NCBI GenBank assembly: GCA_009885185.1
Contig: VFLF01000561.1
Coordinates: 1-6,839 of the forward strand
Direction of reading: 5' to 3'
Length of the DNA: 6,839 bases
From: Nitrosomonadales bacterium
GTDB lineage: Bacteria > Pseudomonadota > Gammaproteobacteria > Burkholderiales > SG8-41
A program made the position numbers and the translations under genes. The notes beneath the pieces are model-generated. The model saw nothing but the letters and a program-made list of their open reading frames with translations, did no database searches and was not told where the DNA came from. Shown here piece after piece: positions 1,889 to 5,905 of this stretch; the stretch's first letter is position 1, and every line of letters begins with the position of its first letter.

Positions 1889-2653
1889 TCACGGCTCGTA
1901 GTAACAACCGTGCGTGGTCGCAGTACGTCCGCCATCCACTACAATGTTTGCGCCACTGACGAACGATGCCGCATCGGATGCCAAGAATAGCACGACAGGC
2001 GCCACGTCCTGCGGCGTGCCTTGGCGGCCCAGCGGTGTGACGGCGACTCTGGATTTGTCTACTGGCGATACGGCAACGGTGCTTTGGCGCGTGCCGCTGG
2101 ATGAGATGCAATTGACGCGTATATTGTATTTGCCCAGATCGTGAGCCATCACGTGTGTGAGAGACAACAAGCCGCCCTTGCCGGCGGAATAGGCTGCGAT
2201 GTAGGGATTGCCCAGAACACCGTCGATGGAACCGTGATTAATGATGGCGCCTGCACCGGCTTTTTTCATCAGCGGCAAAAATGCCTGCGCGCACAAAAAG
2301 GCCGAGGTTAAATTGCGCCCGATCATGGTCACCCAGGTATCGTGCGTCGTTTTCTCGAAGGTCTGCCGGATCGGGTTACGCCCCGCCACGTTAAACAGGA
2401 TGCCCACTTTTGCGAGTGTTTTTGCGCAGGCGTCCGCTACGGCCTGGACCTGCGCCGCGTCGGTTACATCGGCATGAAAATACGGCAGCTCAAACGCATC
2501 CAGGCGCAGCAAGCGAGCATCTTTCATTTCCGCGTTGTCGTCGATGCAAATCACCTGGGCGCCTTCGCGCGCGAACATCAGCGCCGTTGCATGACCAAGA
2601 CCCCAGGCGTCGCCTGCGATCACCGCTGTCTTTCCTTTGAAATTCATCGTCAT
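1889..2653 (-). CDS. Short-chain dehydrogenase/reductase (SDR), classical type
   Basis: This 254-residue protein is a full-length classical SDR. The Rossmann nucleotide site is present as AGDAWGLG (Gly14, Gly18, Gly20). Asp38-Asp39 at the end of beta-2 favour NAD(H) over NADP(H). Asp62 of the DV motif binds adenine, and NVAG (88-91) replaces the usual NNAG. The catalytic tetrad Asn114, Ser142, Tyr155 and Lys159 (YSAGK) is complete, and the end carries SGANIVVDGG, as in FabG-like enzymes. Where most relatives have a PG after NxIxPG, this one has CISSSGTRQ, so the substrate-side loop is unusual. Expected chemistry is reversible oxidation of a secondary alcohol or hydroxyacid. ATG at 2653 is preceded by GTGGGA; a second in-frame ATG at 2647 is possible. 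It precedes a Bug receptor gene on the same strand. The substrate is unknown. Confidence 0.92.
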   Translation of the reverse strand: MTMNFKGKTAVIAGDAWGLGHATALMFAREGAQVICIDDNAEMKDARLLRLDAFELPYFHADVTDAAQVQAVADACAKTLAKVGILFNVAGRNPIRQTFEKTTHDTWVTMIGRNLTSAFLCAQAFLPLMKKAGAGAIINHGSIDGVLGNPYIAAYSAGKGGLLSLTHVMAHDLGKYNIRVNCISSSGTRQSTVAVSPVDKSRVAVTPLGRQGTPQDVAPVVLFLASDAASFVSGANIVVDGGRTATTHGCYYEP

Positions 2654-2686
2654 CGTAATCCCACTTTATAAAGATCGCTCAGCCCG

Positions 2687-2738
2687 CGTAGGGCGCATTA
2701 ACCGAAGGGCAATGCGCTGCGCTTATTGACGCACTACG
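2687..2738. repeat. Nested inverted repeat, GTAGGGCGCATT type
   Basis: An outer pair CGTAG (2687-2691) and CTACG (2734-2738) encloses an inner stem GCGCATT (2693-2699) and AATGCGC (2711-2717) with an eleven-base loop. The wording GTAGGGCGCATTA...GAAGGGC AATGCGC resembles a dispersed intergenic repeat familiar from many proteobacterial genomes. It lies 34 bases upstream of the SDR start. Copy number in this genome cannot be seen from one window. Confidence 0.5.
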
Positions 2739-2741
2739 ACT

Positions 2742-2780
2742 TTTTGCGCGAAGTGCGGTGAAAGATATGCTTTCGCAAAA
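2742..2780. repeat. Inverted repeat TTTTGCG ... CGCAAAA
   Basis: TTTTGCG (2742-2748) is the exact reverse complement of CGCAAAA (2774-2780), with a 25-base spacer whose ends (GAAG and CTTT) nearly continue the pairing. It sits next to the other palindromes of the spacer and may be the core of a larger imperfect repeat. On the minus strand the lower-coordinate end yields AAAA, so it is not a terminator for the upstream operon. Confidence 0.4.
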
Positions 2781-2819
2781 CCCCGGATTTCACGCCGTTG
2801 CATCCGCGCTACGCGTGCT

Positions 2820-2835
2820 GGCGTGAACCCACGCC
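2820..2835. repeat. Hairpin GGCGTG-AACC-CACGCC
   Basis: A perfect six-pair stem (2820-2825 with 2830-2835) encloses a four-base loop. It lies between the REP-like hairpin and the other inverted repeats in the spacer. No T-run follows on either strand. It may stabilise the 3' end of the operon that ends at 2963. Confidence 0.4.
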
Positions 2836-2862
2836 GTATCGATTCGTGCGACTGTGTTATGG

Positions 2863-2882
2863 GTTCCCGCCTGCGCGGGAAC
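2863..2882. repeat. REP-like palindrome GTTCCCGC-CTGC-GCGGGAAC
   Basis: A perfect eight-pair stem (2863-2870 with 2875-2882) with a CTGC tetraloop is followed by GACGG. This matches the very common proteobacterial intergenic element whose translation gives the artefactual PRRREP peptide. It lies about 80 bases after the last gene of the nitrile hydratase-like operon. Such elements typically protect mRNA 3' ends, are spread by RAYT-type transposases, or bind nucleoid proteins. No such transposase is in the window. Confidence 0.75.
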
Positions 2883-2962
2883 GACGGTGGGGTGGTGTGC
2901 GTTTTGGCGCGCAACGTCATCACGCGGCATAAAAATCCACGCAGCGAAGTTACGCCACAAGG

Positions 2963-3646
2963 CTACTCAACAACCTGCGGCACTGTAACCCCCACCAGCA
3001 TGTCGCGCGAGAGTAACCCAGCAAGTTTTTCTTCGCTCCAACCGTCCGTGCCAGCCGGGCGCATCGGCACCACGAGATAACGCATGTCGGCGTTGGAGTC
3101 ATGCACGCGCACCGTCATGCTGTCGGGCAGTTCGGTGCCGAATTCCTTGAGCACGGCGCGCGGCTCAAATACCACGCGCGAGCGGTAGTTGCGGCTTTTG
3201 TACCACGTGGGCGGCATGCCGAGCAGTGCGCGCGGGTAGCACGAGCACAGCGTGCAGACGATGATGTTATGCACGTCAGGCGTGTTCTCCACGGCGATCA
3301 GGCGCTCGGCTTCGAGCATCGCGCCCATTTCCGCGCATGCGGCGCGGCCATCGGCCAGCAGGCGTTGTTTGAATGCGGGATCGACCCACGCGCGCGCGAC
3401 GACTTGCGCGCCGTGATACGGGAACTCGTCGTCGAAAAGCTCCATGCGTTTGGTTACTTGCGCGGCGGTGATGATGCCTTTTTGTTCGAGCAACTCCTGC
3501 ATCGCGCGGCTGATGATTTCGTACTCGCCGGGCGGGCCGTTGTCGTGTTCGTTCACGGGCGCATGATCGTCGTGATCATGCGCGTGGTCATGATCGTGGT
3601 GGTCACTATTCTTGTGGGCGTAGTGATCGTGGATTGGGTTGCTCAT
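2963..3646 (-). CDS. nthA: Nitrile hydratase alpha-family subunit (thiocyanate hydrolase gamma-like), cobalt type
   Basis: This 227-residue protein is the metal-binding subunit. VCTLCSCYPR (130-139) is the claw: Cys131, Cys134 and Cys136 plus the backbone around Ser135 bind the metal, and in relatives two of the cysteines are oxidised to sulfinate and sulfenate. Thr after the first Cys marks the cobalt class; iron enzymes have CSLCSC. The following WYK, YRSRVV, PRAVLKEFG, RPAGTDGW and RDMLVGV stretches are family landmarks. The N-terminus is unusual: 11 His and many Asp within residues 6-35, resembling the His-rich tail I recall for thiocyanate hydrolase gamma. Arg139 in place of the common Trp also fits that enzyme, but the VENTPDVHN stretch before the claw reads like ordinary nitrile hydratase. 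AGAGGA overlapping the previous stop is the ribosome site for ATG 3646. It is last in a three-gene operon. Nitrile hydration versus thiocyanate hydrolysis is unresolved; the symbol reflects family only. Confidence 0.9.
   Translation of the reverse strand: MSNPIHDHYAHKNSDHHDHDHAHDHDDHAPVNEHDNGPPGEYEIISRAMQELLEQKGIITAAQVTKRMELFDDEFPYHGAQVVARAWVDPAFKQRLLADGRAACAEMGAMLEAERLIAVENTPDVHNIIVCTLCSCYPRALLGMPPTWYKSRNYRSRVVFEPRAVLKEFGTELPDSMTVRVHDSNADMRYLVVPMRPAGTDGWSEEKLAGLLSRDMLVGVTVPQVVE
3562..3595 (-). repeat. Alternating CATGATC/GATCATG arms in the His-rich coding segment
   Basis: CATGATC (3562-3568), GATCATG (3574-3580) and CATGATC (3589-3595) are three arms in which the middle one can pair with either neighbour. 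They arise inside His-Asp codon repeats (CAT GAT, CAC GAC) about 50-85 bases into the alpha-type gene. The symmetry is mostly a consequence of the coding repeat, but it creates mutually exclusive mRNA hairpins near the start of translation. Confidence 0.5.
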
Positions 3647-3655
3647 GGGAGTCCT

Positions 3656-3988
3656 CTAATTTTTCACCGAGTCGAGCCAATGCTCGTAAATTTCCATTTC
3701 GATAATGTCGTTCGCCGGCCCGGCGTAACCCGGCCACACGTGGGTTTGCATGAAGCGCACGCGATAGAGTATTTTCTCGGGCTTGCCGTCGAAGCTGTAG
3801 GCAAGTTCTTCGGGGTTCGGAAACGCGCCGCAGATGCGTTCGATCAGGCCTTGTTTGCCGCGGATGTACATGGGCGTGCGGCGGTGTCCCGGCGGTGTTG
3901 CGTGCTTGACCACCACCTTGTCGCCGACGTTGAAGCGGTGCGCCGGCGCCGGCGTGTAGGTGCTTTTCAAAGAAGCGGTGCTACTCAT
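3656..3988 (-). CDS. Nitrile hydratase beta C-terminal-half subunit (thiocyanate hydrolase alpha-like)
   Basis: This 110-residue protein corresponds to the SH3-like C-terminal half of nitrile hydratase beta. Landmarks are FNVGDKVVV (19-27), HRRTPMYIRGKQG (35-47), ILYRVRF (73-79), a Trp-containing loop near 85, and a final acidic strand with YEHWL. In the fused beta subunit an Arg of the HxRxPxYxRGxxG region contacts the oxidised cysteines of the alpha claw; Arg36, Arg37 or Arg43 is the likely counterpart. In thiocyanate hydrolase the same half is a separate alpha subunit of similar size. The start codon overlaps the stop of the preceding gene by four bases (ATGA, 3985-3988), so translation is coupled. 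The next gene starts nine bases after the stop. The protein should assemble with both neighbours in the cytoplasm and is unlikely to be active alone. Confidence 0.85.
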   Translation of the reverse strand: MSSTASLKSTYTPAPAHRFNVGDKVVVKHATPPGHRRTPMYIRGKQGLIERICGAFPNPEELAYSFDGKPEKILYRVRFMQTHVWPGYAGPANDIIEMEIYEHWLDSVKN

Positions 3989-4344
3989 TTTTTCGCTCCC
4001 TTTTTGAGGGGTGACTCCATTTCATCCGGCACGTTAAAGCGCGCGCGGATGTCGTCCATCTTCGCCTTGAGTTCCTGCTCGGTGAAGAGGCCTTTTTCGA
4101 GCAGCACCGCGCGCAGCGCGCTGGTGGTGATCTCGAAGTACTGCATATCCTTGTAGCGGCTGCCGAGGTCTTCGGCGGCGCGGCGCAGTTCGTCGGTACA
4201 AGTGATTTTTTGCATCTGCACCACGGAACGCAGCGCGTTGGCCTGACGCTCCCAGTGCTTCATGCCGTGATCGTGGGTATCGACCGCACCCGCGGGTTCG
4301 CCGCCGATGTCGGAAGGGAGGGTTTTTGCCGGTGTATCGCTCAT
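3985..4344 (-). CDS. Nitrile hydratase beta N-terminal-half subunit (thiocyanate hydrolase beta-like)
   Basis: This 119-residue, mainly helical protein matches the N-terminal half of nitrile hydratase beta. Visible landmarks are HWERQANAL (30-38), DELRRAAEDL (51-60), YKDMQYFE (64-71) and EKGLFTEQEL (83-92). In the fused enzyme an Arg in the equivalent of DELRR, with one from the C-terminal half, contacts the claw; Arg54 or Arg55 fits. The first 28 residues are a loose, poorly conserved extension. Activator proteins (P14K/P15K) share this fold but normally show an FTWxEWA motif, absent here, so a structural subunit is more likely. It is first in the operon, giving the N-half, C-half, alpha order of scnB-scnA-scnC and of cobalt-type beta-before-alpha operons. 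ATG 4344 has only a weak AGGCG ribosome site. Confidence 0.8.
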   Translation of the reverse strand: MSDTPAKTLPSDIGGEPAGAVDTHDHGMKHWERQANALRSVVQMQKITCTDELRRAAEDLGSRYKDMQYFEITTSALRAVLLEKGLFTEQELKAKMDDIRARFNVPDEMESPLKKGAKK

Positions 4345-4425
4345 GATGGGCGCCTGTCGTGTCGAATGAACCTGGTTACCACGCTTTTATGGGTGCCGCT
4401 GGTGCCGCCGCGGTCTCCAGCATAA

Positions 4426-4454
4426 ATGATAATCGCTCGCGTAGTGAAATAAAA
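4426..4454 (-). promoter_or_regulatory. Possible sigma70 promoter for the three-subunit enzyme operon
   Basis: On the minus strand TATCAT (4431-4426) matches five of six -10 bases. TTTTAT (4454-4449), a poor -35, lies 17 bases upstream. The start of transcription would leave a leader of about 75 bases before ATG 4344. The region is AT-rich against a GC-rich background, which supports a promoter in general more than these exact boxes. Confidence 0.3.
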
Positions 4455-4462
4455 CCTTTTGT

Positions 4463-4492
4463 TTGACGGCGGGCGGGGCGCGGGCGTAGCAT
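4463..4492 (+). promoter_or_regulatory. Possible sigma70 promoter for the CBS-domain gene
   Basis: TTGACG (4463-4468) matches five of six -35 bases, and TAGCAT (4487-4492) matches four of six -10 bases, with an 18-base spacer. It lies back-to-back with the candidate minus-strand promoter, so this 219-base divergent region probably drives both directions. The leader to ATG 4564 would be about 65 bases. Confidence 0.45.
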
Positions 4493-4563
4493 CATTCTCG
4501 TGGAACCGCCGGGGCGGGGACATGAGGCGTGCTTCGCCGGACAATCCCAATCAGGAGGCAGAC

Positions 4564-4998
4564 ATGACGATTCGAACCTTGCGCGACATCGTTGCGCAGC
4601 AAACACCGGTAACGGCGCCCACATCCATGTCGGTGCGCGACGCGGCGATCGTGATGAGGCAGCGGCGCATCGGCGCAATGATGGTGGTTGAGAACGGTGT
4701 GCTGGCCGGTGTATTCACCGAGCGCGATGCACTGAATCGCGTGGTCGCCGAGGGCCGCGACCCACAAGCCACGTCTCTGGCCGACGTGATGACCAAAAAC
4801 CCGCGGACGTTAAGTCCTGACGCAATATTTACCGCCGCGCTCGAACTGATGCATGAAGGCCGTTTTCGCCATGTGCCGATCGTCGAGCACGGCGTGCCGG
4901 TGGGCATGGTGTCAGTGCGCGACGCGATGGGGCCGGAACTGGAATCATTCGTCTACGAAATGCTGCGCCAGGAGCAGGTATCGGAAGTGTTGGCGTAA
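4564..4998 (+). CDS. Two-CBS-domain protein
   Basis: This 144-residue cytoplasmic protein consists of a tandem pair of CBS domains (a Bateman module) and nothing else. CBS1 spans about residues 7-64 and ends in GVFTERDAL; CBS2 spans about 72-124 and ends in GMVSVRDAM. The G-x-[FV]-[ST]-x-R-D pattern at each end is the usual contact with the ribose or phosphate of adenine nucleotides such as AMP, ATP or NAD. Such proteins sense energy state and modulate a partner. A strong AGGAGG (4553-4558), five bases before ATG 4564, sets the start; in-frame upstream ATGs at 4459 and 4522 lack such a site and would add a low-complexity Arg/Gly-rich extension. It is divergent from the three-subunit enzyme operon and 85 bases before the cupin gene. 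No partner can be identified. Confidence 0.9.
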   Translation: MTIRTLRDIVAQQTPVTAPTSMSVRDAAIVMRQRRIGAMMVVENGVLAGVFTERDALNRVVAEGRDPQATSLADVMTKNPRTLSPDAIFTAALELMHEGRFRHVPIVEHGVPVGMVSVRDAMGPELESFVYEMLRQEQVSEVLA

Positions 4999-5083: not shown

Positions 5084-5905
5084 ATGCAGTTTCACGTGGG
5101 TCAACTCAATGAGTCCCGCTTCGCCGTGCCGCACGGCTATGCGCAGCGTTCGCGCGGCTACGAGCGTGCATCGCTGATCGACCGCGGCATCGGCTCGGTA
5201 CACATGGGCGTGGGGGTTTGCCGGCTGGCCGCGGGCGGCAGCGTGGATGCCTGCGTGCACGCCAACGAAAAAGGGATTTATGTTTTCGAGGGCGCTGTCG
5301 AATTAAAGCGCGGCAGCGATGTTTTCGTGTTGGGCAAGGACGACTACGCGCTGATACCCACCGGCACGCCGCATGCCTATCGCAATGTGAGTGGACAACC
5401 CGCGCGCTGGTTCGACATGCAGGCGCCGCAGCCCAAGCCGCCGGGCAAATGGCAGGATACATTTTTTGTCGGTGATGAGGCTGCTGGGCCGGGCGCGGGC
5501 CCGATCAAAACGGGGCACTTTGAGACGCGCGCCCCCATTATCAATCCCAATGCCGGTGTGTCGGGCCTGCGCGTGTATCGCTTTATGGAAAAGGAATTCG
5601 GCGCGCAGTGTTTTTACATGATGCGCGGCGAGCTTGCGCCGGGCGGGGTGCGCGGTTATCACGATCACCCGGTCGAAGAGAGTTATCTCGCGTTAAGCGG
5701 CGAGGCGATCATGTCGATTGAAGGCGAGGATTTTCATCTCAAGGCGGGCGATTACGTGTGGACGGGCGTGGGCGCGTGCCACGCATTCAGGCACATCGGG
5801 ACGGAGACGTTTCGCTGGATCGAGACGCAGGCGCCGCAGTTCCCGGCGCATCAGGGTACGCGCAACTACAACGTGTGGGAAAAATTTCTTCAAGGGCAAT
5901 CATGA
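5084..5905 (+). CDS. Bicupin protein with one intact metal site
   Basis: This 273-residue protein has two cupin barrels. The second matches the classical motif closely: GGVRGYHDHPVEESYLALSG gives His193, His195 and Glu199, and His233 in GACHAF completes a metal site, although motif 2 lacks the usual Pro and final Asn. The first barrel has a good motif 2 (PTGTPHAYRN, His97), but motif 1 reads HAN-EKG, with Asn61 and Lys63 where His and Glu are expected, so it probably binds no metal. This arrangement, one catalytic and one structural barrel, resembles bicupins such as ureidoglycine aminohydrolase (AllE), but I do not see enough to assign that reaction. CGGAGG (5074-5079) precedes ATG 5084. The stop overlaps the start of the next Bug receptor gene as ATGA, implying coupled translation and perhaps a shared substrate. 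The function is otherwise unknown. Confidence 0.85.
   Translation: MQFHVGQLNESRFAVPHGYAQRSRGYERASLIDRGIGSVHMGVGVCRLAAGGSVDACVHANEKGIYVFEGAVELKRGSDVFVLGKDDYALIPTGTPHAYRNVSGQPARWFDMQAPQPKPPGKWQDTFFVGDEAAGPGAGPIKTGHFETRAPIINPNAGVSGLRVYRFMEKEFGAQCFYMMRGELAPGGVRGYHDHPVEESYLALSGEAIMSIEGEDFHLKAGDYVWTGVGACHAFRHIGTETFRWIETQAPQFPAHQGTRNYNVWEKFLQGQS

What the first reader, a model, noticed from the sequence alone, without database searches (positions are those of the whole stretch)
2963..4344. Three-subunit nitrile hydratase/thiocyanate hydrolase-type enzyme with split beta subunit
Seen: beta N-half (119 aa), beta C-half (110 aa) and alpha-type (227 aa) genes run in this order, the first two joined by ATGA and the third nine bases later. 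Known: this architecture and order are those of thiocyanate hydrolase (scnB-scnA-scnC), and toyocamycin nitrile hydratase is also three-subunit; most nitrile hydratases are two-subunit. Inference: the alpha-type protein mixes features, with a His-rich tail and CYPR as in thiocyanate hydrolase but VENTPDVHN before the claw as in nitrile hydratase. It may belong to an intermediate or uncharacterised clade with an unassigned substrate.
Basis: partly seen in the sequence, partly recalled or inferred. Interest (0 to 1): 0.75.

Follow-up and report, generated by a model that had tools for sequence, protein, structure and literature searches.

The report
Split-beta nitrile hydratase, uncharacterised clade
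Three neighbouring genes very probably encode a cobalt enzyme that turns nitriles into amides and whose usual second subunit is cut into two proteins; the design is already known and proves to be common, but this branch and its natural substrate seem unstudied.

Summary
The three genes are real, at the stated coordinates, in the order beta-N, beta-C, alpha. They are neither a thiocyanate hydrolase nor a one-off intermediate. The alpha passes the nitrile hydratase (NHase) model and fails the ScnC model. It lies in a well-supported, mostly betaproteobacterial clade apart from ScnC-type proteins. Split beta is the norm there: of the 80 loci, 75 are split, 3 fused, 2 undetermined. The 'mixed' motif is the branch's usual signature: CYPR occurs in 22 of 22 window-clade and 61 of 71 other split loci. 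The site of ScnB Arg90 is Leu in 22 of 22 window-clade loci and Arg in 23 of 23 ScnC-type loci. The gene order without an activator gene is that of a characterised NHase, Streptomyces canus AnhD-AnhE-AnhA. No activator-like gene lies beside the operon in 22 of 22 window-clade loci. Most likely it is a Co-type NHase that matures without a separate activator; its substrate is unknown, and the pocket arginine hints at a polar or anionic nitrile (inference). An unnamed M28-fold gene lies directly downstream in 10 of 20 sister loci, not here.

The parts
3985..4344 (-). beta N-half (119 aa), equivalent of ScnB / AnhD
   Evidence: PF21006 45.1 bits; first 29 PDB fold matches are NHase/SCNase beta chains, best E 1.6e-3; first gene of the run
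3656..3988 (-). beta C-half (110 aa), equivalent of ScnA / AnhE; overlaps the previous gene by ATGA
   Evidence: PF02211 75.3 bits; PDB NHase beta C-domains and ScnA
2963..3646 (-). alpha subunit (227 aa) with His-rich N-terminus
   Evidence: PF02979 268 bits; TIGR01323 264.9 over cut-off 249.85, TIGR03887 211.9 under cut-off 291.45
3239..3256 (-). metal claw CTLCSC (alpha residues 131-136)
   Evidence: read from the sequence; position from the PDB alignment; same claw letters in all 103 rows aligned
3230..3232 (-). alpha Arg139 (CYPR), site of ScnC Arg136 and of the Trp after CYP in P. thermophila NHase
4186..4188 (-). beta-N Leu53 at the site of ScnB Arg90
   Evidence: alignments
4183..4185 (-). 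beta-N Arg54, equivalent of NHase beta Arg52
   Evidence: role of R52/R157 in PMC7193024 (passage)
4138..4140 (-). beta-N Tyr69, equivalent of NHase beta Tyr68 (NHase numbering recalled)
3878..3880 (-). beta-C Arg37, equivalent of NHase beta Arg157
   Evidence: role in PMC7193024 (passage)

Best explanation
It is a cobalt-type nitrile hydratase made of beta-N, beta-C and alpha that hydrates an organic nitrile to its amide. Alpha holds a cobalt ion in the CTLCSC claw, with two of the cysteines oxidised. The two beta arginines that pair with the oxidised cysteines sit one on each beta half, so both halves are probably needed for full activity. No separate activator gene is linked; the beta-N half probably serves as the cobalt and subunit-swapping chaperone, as reported for AnhD of S. 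canus. The pocket carries Arg where two-subunit NHases carry Trp, and Leu where thiocyanate hydrolase carries its second Arg, so the natural substrate is probably a polar or anionic nitrile rather than thiocyanate. Shown here: gene order, family by models, conserved catalytic residues, clade, no activator-like gene within the window. Inferred: metal, oxidation, assembly, chaperone role, substrate type.
For: TIGR01323 cut-off passed, TIGR03887 not. Catalytic residues present. In the careful tree the window clade (10 rows sampled) is supported at 100/100 and the ScnC-type group (10 rows) at 100/99, as separate groups. Window clade 22 of 22 with Arg/Leu at the two selectivity sites, ScnC-type 23 of 23 with Arg/Arg, fused two-subunit NHases 22 of 23 with Trp at the first. 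No activator-like gene in reach in 22 of 22 window-clade loci, against 22 of 23 fused NHase and 6 of 7 Scn loci that have one. Genome-wide, TIGR03889 is absent from 9 of 14 clade genomes; in the other 5 it lies beside a second, fused NHase. S. canus AnhDEA has the same order, no activator gene found, and hydrates nitriles.
Against: No activity data for any clade member were found. S. canus AnhA was not identified here; the four actinobacterial split loci that are my nearest stand-ins lie on the other side of the tree and have Leu or Ile at the first site, and a review says S. canus NHase branches with S. rimosus NHase (passage), so the activator-free mechanism is carried over by analogy. For S. 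rimosus NHase the alpha alone is reported as sufficient for activity (passage), which speaks against the beta halves being needed in every three-subunit enzyme. The activator association has too few independent changes for a test (3 supported pairs); 7 of 71 other split loci have an extra beta-N-like gene, and many of the fetched loci carry only about 1.5 kb of flank. No amidase is among the 25 commonest Pfam families around the clade.
Confidence: 0.75

Rival explanations
1. It is a thiocyanate hydrolase (ScnABC) that forms ammonia and carbonyl sulfide from thiocyanate.
For: Same gene order as scnB-scnA-scnC, CYPR and His-rich N-terminus; Arg at the site of ScnC Arg136.
Against: TIGR03887 below cut-off; placed outside the ScnC-type group; ScnB Arg90 site is Leu in 22 of 22 clade loci; no P15K-like chaperone: of 14 clade genomes 13 have no match and 1 has a weak match (E 1.1e-4) near another alpha gene.
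Confidence: 0.07
2. It acts on another small C-N triple-bond compound (cyanide, cyanamide, an isonitrile or a nitrile carboxylate) and forms a substrate class of its own, shared by the Arg-type split-beta branch.
For: Arg at claw+3 in 22 of 22 clade and 61 of 71 other split loci, where fused NHases have Trp in 22 of 23; well-separated side of the tree; neighbours rich in TctC carboxylate receptors (29 of 125 neighbour proteins scanned).
Against: TctC genes are generally abundant in such bacteria (recalled), so the neighbourhood is weak evidence; no substrate data.
Confidence: 0.15
3. The genes are decaying or not expressed as an enzyme.
For: None beyond the lack of a consensus promoter on the minus strand, which says little.
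Against: All three frames are intact; the same overlap of the first two genes is seen in relatives such as L003, L006 and L007; catalytic residues kept in 22 of 22; the 120 relatives listed are 76-93% identical.
Confidence: 0.03

Closest known systems
Streptomyces canus CGMCC 13662 nitrile hydratase AnhD-AnhE-AnhA (PMC7329996)
   Same: Gene order beta-N, beta-C, alpha; three subunits; no activator gene found (abstract, Introduction and passages read).
   Different: Its sequence was not compared here. The actinobacterial split loci found (L107, L108, L112, L114), which may be of its kind, lie in the other half of the tree and have Leu or Ile, not Arg, after CYP.
Thiocyanate hydrolase ScnBAC of Thiobacillus thioparus (PDB 2dd4, 2zzd)
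   Same: Order (in the Scn loci L081-L087), split beta, claw, CYPR, His-rich N-terminus.
   Different: 40% (alpha/gamma), 26% (beta-N/ScnB), 36% (beta-C/ScnA) identity; no ScnB Arg90 equivalent, no P15K neighbour; separate clade.
Two-subunit Co-type nitrile hydratase (Pseudonocardia thermophila)
   Same: 52% identity of alpha, claw, beta Arg52, Arg157 and Tyr68 equivalents.
   Different: Here beta is in two genes, Arg instead of Trp follows CYP, and no activator-like gene is linked.
Toyocamycin nitrile hydratase of Streptomyces rimosus (ToyJ and partners; role recalled, named in PMC7329996)
   Same: Three subunits.
   Different: Acts in antibiotic biosynthesis (recalled); alpha alone reported active (passage); sequence not compared here.

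Membership tests
Nitrile hydratase (Co-type) | alpha passes the curated equivalog model TIGR01323 | tested here: met
   264.9 bits, cut-off 249.85
Nitrile hydratase (Co-type) | claw C-T-L-C-S-C | tested here: met
Nitrile hydratase (Co-type) | beta Arg52, Tyr68 and Arg157 equivalents | tested here: met
   R, Y, R in the window and in 22 of 22 window-clade loci
Nitrile hydratase (Co-type) | single beta chain passing TIGR03888 | tested here: not met
   62.7 and 30.1 bits for the halves, cut-off 152.2; not taken as defining, since S. canus NHase is split too
Nitrile hydratase (Co-type) | nitrile to amide activity | not testable with these tools
   needs the enzyme
Thiocyanate hydrolase | gamma subunit passes TIGR03887 | tested here: not met
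   211.9 bits, cut-off 291.45; 7 of 399 genomes from the order of G009 have a hit over the cut-off
Thiocyanate hydrolase | Arg at ScnC Arg136 | tested here: met
   the site is swapped in PDB 3vyg and 3vyh
Thiocyanate hydrolase | Arg at ScnB Arg90 (role recalled, not read) | tested here: not met
   Leu in 22 of 22 window-clade loci; Arg in 23 of 23 ScnC-type loci
Thiocyanate hydrolase | groups with ScnC in a tree | tested here: not met
Three-subunit, activator-free nitrile hydratase (AnhDEA kind) | order beta-N, beta-C, alpha | tested here: met
Three-subunit, activator-free nitrile hydratase (AnhDEA kind) | no activator gene | tested here: inconclusive
   none in the window or beside 22 of 22 window-clade loci, but the window's own genome is not held, and 5 of 14 clade genomes have an activator beside a second NHase
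Three-subunit, activator-free nitrile hydratase (AnhDEA kind) | same clade as S. canus AnhA | tested here: inconclusive
   S. canus sequence not identified; possible actinobacterial relatives fall elsewhere
Three-subunit, activator-free nitrile hydratase (AnhDEA kind) | beta-N acts as chaperone | not testable with these tools
   reported for AnhD in PMC7329996

The most novel reading that the evidence does not exclude
The Arg-type split-beta branch is a separate enzyme class: activator-free, using its own beta-N half as cobalt chaperone, tuned by the pocket arginine to anionic or polar nitriles. In the window's clade it works with an unnamed M28-fold protein encoded directly downstream in half of the sister loci, either as the enzyme for the next step or as a maturation factor.
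Probability: 0.2. Interest if true: 0.6.

Novelty: new member of a known kind. Interest (0 to 1): 0.32.

Why it matters
It shows that CYPR plus a split beta does not mark a thiocyanate hydrolase, so thiocyanate-degrading capacity can be over-called from these features; Arg at the ScnB Arg90 site separates the groups better in this sample (23 of 23 ScnC-type loci against 1 of 97 other split loci). It also offers a large set of small NHases without a linked activator gene, useful for asking how cobalt insertion works and for amide synthesis.

Tried and rejected
Thiocyanate hydrolase: rejected on model cut-off, tree, second arginine and missing P15K.

Beta-N half as a P14K-type activator instead of a subunit: rejected; it matches NHase_beta_N, TIGR03889 was not among its matches at E 0.01, it carries the catalytic Arg and Tyr, and it aligns to ScnB.

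RiPP precursor: alpha also matches the NHLP leader model TIGR03793 (63.1 bits, over its cut-off 50.9), but it is a full-length alpha with claw, so I take this as the kinship between leader peptides and NHase alpha (recalled).

Statistical link between split beta and lack of activator: clear in counts, but only 3 supported independent pairs, so no test is possible.

Remnant of the M28-fold gene between alpha and SDR in the window: none found (the weak matches lie elsewhere). Promoter-like and terminator-like sites at 2600-4700: 1 found against a shuffled mean of 0.9, and 5 against 2.9 with sd 1.9, so not used. Inverted repeats of 14 nt or more between alpha and SDR: none.

The published report that two arginines control the selectivity of thiocyanate hydrolase is recalled only; a search for part of its title found nothing, one search did not list it, and I read none of it.

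Changes made on re-checking: L022's doubtful place in the 22-row clade, the unnamed order of the 399 genomes, short flanks, the ToyJ result and the capped lists are now told, and the 'no activator gene' row is set to inconclusive.

Full report
Observation. Three minus-strand genes are present as described: 3985-4344, 3656-3988 and 2963-3646, with an ATGA overlap and a 9-base gap. Pfam assigns NHase_beta_N, NHase_beta_C and NHase_alpha, all above their gathering scores. A structure prediction of the 119-aa protein (pLDDT 80, pTM 0.60) has NHase and thiocyanate hydrolase beta chains as its first 29 PDB hits, the best at E 1.6e-3.

Which family. The alpha passes NCBI's nitrile hydratase alpha model (264.9 against 249.85 bits) and fails the thiocyanate hydrolase gamma model (211.9 against 291.45). 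Identity is 52% to P. thermophila NHase alpha and 40% to ScnC; beta-N is 26% identical to ScnB and beta-C 36% to ScnA. In 399 genomes drawn from the order of G009 (the genome of L056, titled a betaproteobacterium; the order is not named), 87 had some match to the ScnC model and 7 were over its cut-off; those 7 supplied Scn loci L081-L087.

Tree. A quick tree of 141 alpha sequences (149 loci less 10, plus 2 references; the 10 are nine copies or near-copies and the truncated L027) and a careful tree of 67 rows show the same main groups. One side holds the two-subunit, Trp-type NHases with the four actinobacterial split loci (two of them in the careful tree) and L148; the other holds the mostly proteobacterial split-beta enzymes and the ScnC-type group (100/100 in the careful tree). 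The window lies in a clade of assemblies titled mostly Betaproteobacteria: 22 rows at 99 in the quick tree, 10 sampled rows at 100/100 in the careful one. One of the 22, L022, is an alphaproteobacterial bin on a long branch and was not in the careful tree, so its place is doubtful; without it every 22 of 22 below reads 21 of 21. The ScnC-type group is separate (100/99). Deeper order within the split side is poorly supported. Titles such as Bordetella parapertussis or Chitinophaga pinensis in this clade belong to metagenome bins and I give them no weight.

How common. Of 149 loci, 107 are split (103 in the order beta-N, beta-C, alpha), 40 fused, 2 undetermined; of the 80 kept (out of 252 found with patterns cut from the window's alpha), 75 are split, 3 fused, 2 undetermined. 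'Split' means that the two halves lie in different open frames, so an assembly frameshift could pass as split. The sample leans towards relatives of the window by design.

Selectivity sites. The residue after CYP is the one that differs in PDB 3vyg (ScnC, Trp for Arg) and 3vyh (NHase, Arg for Trp), as their sequences show. That ScnB Arg90 is the partner arginine is recalled. Over 145 loci (4 duplicates dropped): window clade 22 of 22 Arg/Leu; ScnC-type 23 of 23 Arg/Arg (7 over the ScnC cut-off, and 16 with fused beta grouped with them by the tree only); fused NHases 22 of 23 Trp, 1 Tyr; other split 71: 61 Arg, 6 Lys, 3 Val, 1 Trp at the first site, and at the second 1 Arg (L033), 3 Lys, the rest other residues; actinobacterial split 4: Leu or Ile with Phe; 2 undetermined, both with Arg at the first site. 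The 71 include seven near-copies (L089, L093-L098).

Maturation. An extra beta-N-like gene (activator or P15K) lies near 22 of 23 fused NHases, 15 of 16 fused ScnC-type and 6 of 7 Scn loci, but near 0 of 22 window-clade loci, 0 of 4 actinobacterial split loci and 7 of 71 other split loci. The reach was 2.6 kb, less where a contig or a fetched stretch ends: L081-L130 carry about 1.5 kb at most on each side. Genome-wide, the activator model TIGR03889 is absent from 9 of 14 clade genomes and in the other 5 lies beside a second, fused NHase; it does not see P15K, since the three Scn genomes given have no match. A search with P15K itself hit the 2 Scn genomes given; of 14 clade genomes 13 had no match and G016 a weak one (E 1.1e-4) near another alpha gene. 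Completeness of these genomes is not told. S. canus AnhDEA, with the same order and no activator gene found, matures through AnhD (PMC7329996: abstract, Introduction, passages), and a 2026 review repeats the architecture and puts it on a branch with S. rimosus NHase (PMC13243292, passages). Carrying the mechanism over to the window clade is inference. Against a general rule, the alpha of S. rimosus NHase is reported active alone (passage), and the phylogenetic test has no power.

Surroundings. Neighbour frames came from a crude longest-frame caller, so some are spurious. Around 21 loci (window, L001-L019, L063), 125 of the 143 neighbour proteins listed were scanned: 29 are TctC receptors; then 5 members at most per family, among them 3-hydroxyisobutyrate-type dehydrogenases (5), intradiol dioxygenases (4), SDRs (4), class II aldolases (4), cupins (4) and TauE sulfite-exporter proteins (3). 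No amidase, cobalt transporter or thiocyanate gene is among the 25 commonest of 50 families; the other 25 were not shown. The window order alpha, SDR, TctC is also found in L002 and, with one gene and one small frame inserted, in L001; the TctC proteins are 90% identical. The inserted gene, about 390 aa, lies directly downstream of alpha in 10 of 20 sister loci (gaps 11-174 bases), has no significant Pfam or NCBIfam match, and folds like M28 aminopeptidases (pLDDT 88.9; best E 1.2e-23), with HELGH, invariant in the 43 sequences aligned, where the M28 protein 3iib has Glu-Glu (the sequence match itself is only E 0.016). In the 399 genomes it has 5 matches: the four at 70% identity or more lie next to an alpha of the window clade, and the fifth (31%) was not followed. 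In 14 clade genomes 8 have it, 7 of them adjacent to alpha. The window shows no trace of it within its 6.8 kb.

Verdict. An ordinary but apparently unstudied member of a known kind of enzyme: a three-subunit, probably activator-free, cobalt nitrile hydratase with unknown substrate. No characterised clade member turned up in open-access papers; most subscription journals are not in that library.

Noticed in passing
L007:8856-10025 and nine sister loci (L001, L003, L006, L008-L013): Unnamed family of about 390 aa (617 relatives at E<=1e-5 among 7,997 scored; of the 120 listed none has a Pfam domain and every name given is 'hypothetical protein'), M28 aminopeptidase fold with altered metal ligands and an invariant HELGH, directly downstream of the NHase alpha.
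   Followed up: partly
L109, L110, L113, L116, L118-L125, L127-L130: Loci from the class of a Nonomuraea genome with an alpha that groups with ScnC, both selectivity arginines, but a fused beta chain: possible two-subunit thiocyanate hydrolases. Not run against TIGR03887.
   Followed up: partly
L022:7677-8633: Beta-N and alpha in one open frame (318 aa), followed by beta-C.
   Followed up: no
L020:1923-3206: Three or four beta-N-like frames in a row before beta-C and alpha.
   Followed up: no
L058, L137: Rearranged order beta-C, alpha, beta-N.
   Followed up: no
L033: The only split locus outside the ScnC-type group with Arg at both selectivity sites; a good test of the arginine rule.
   Followed up: no
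window 2863-2882: Perfect hairpin GTTCCCGC-CTGC-GCGGGAAC between alpha and SDR that looks like a dispersed repeat; too short for the repeat search run.
   Followed up: no
window 5084-5905: Bicupin protein weakly like ureidoglycine aminohydrolase (35.3 bits, cut-off 200), next to a TctC gene, divergent from the NHase genes.
   Followed up: no
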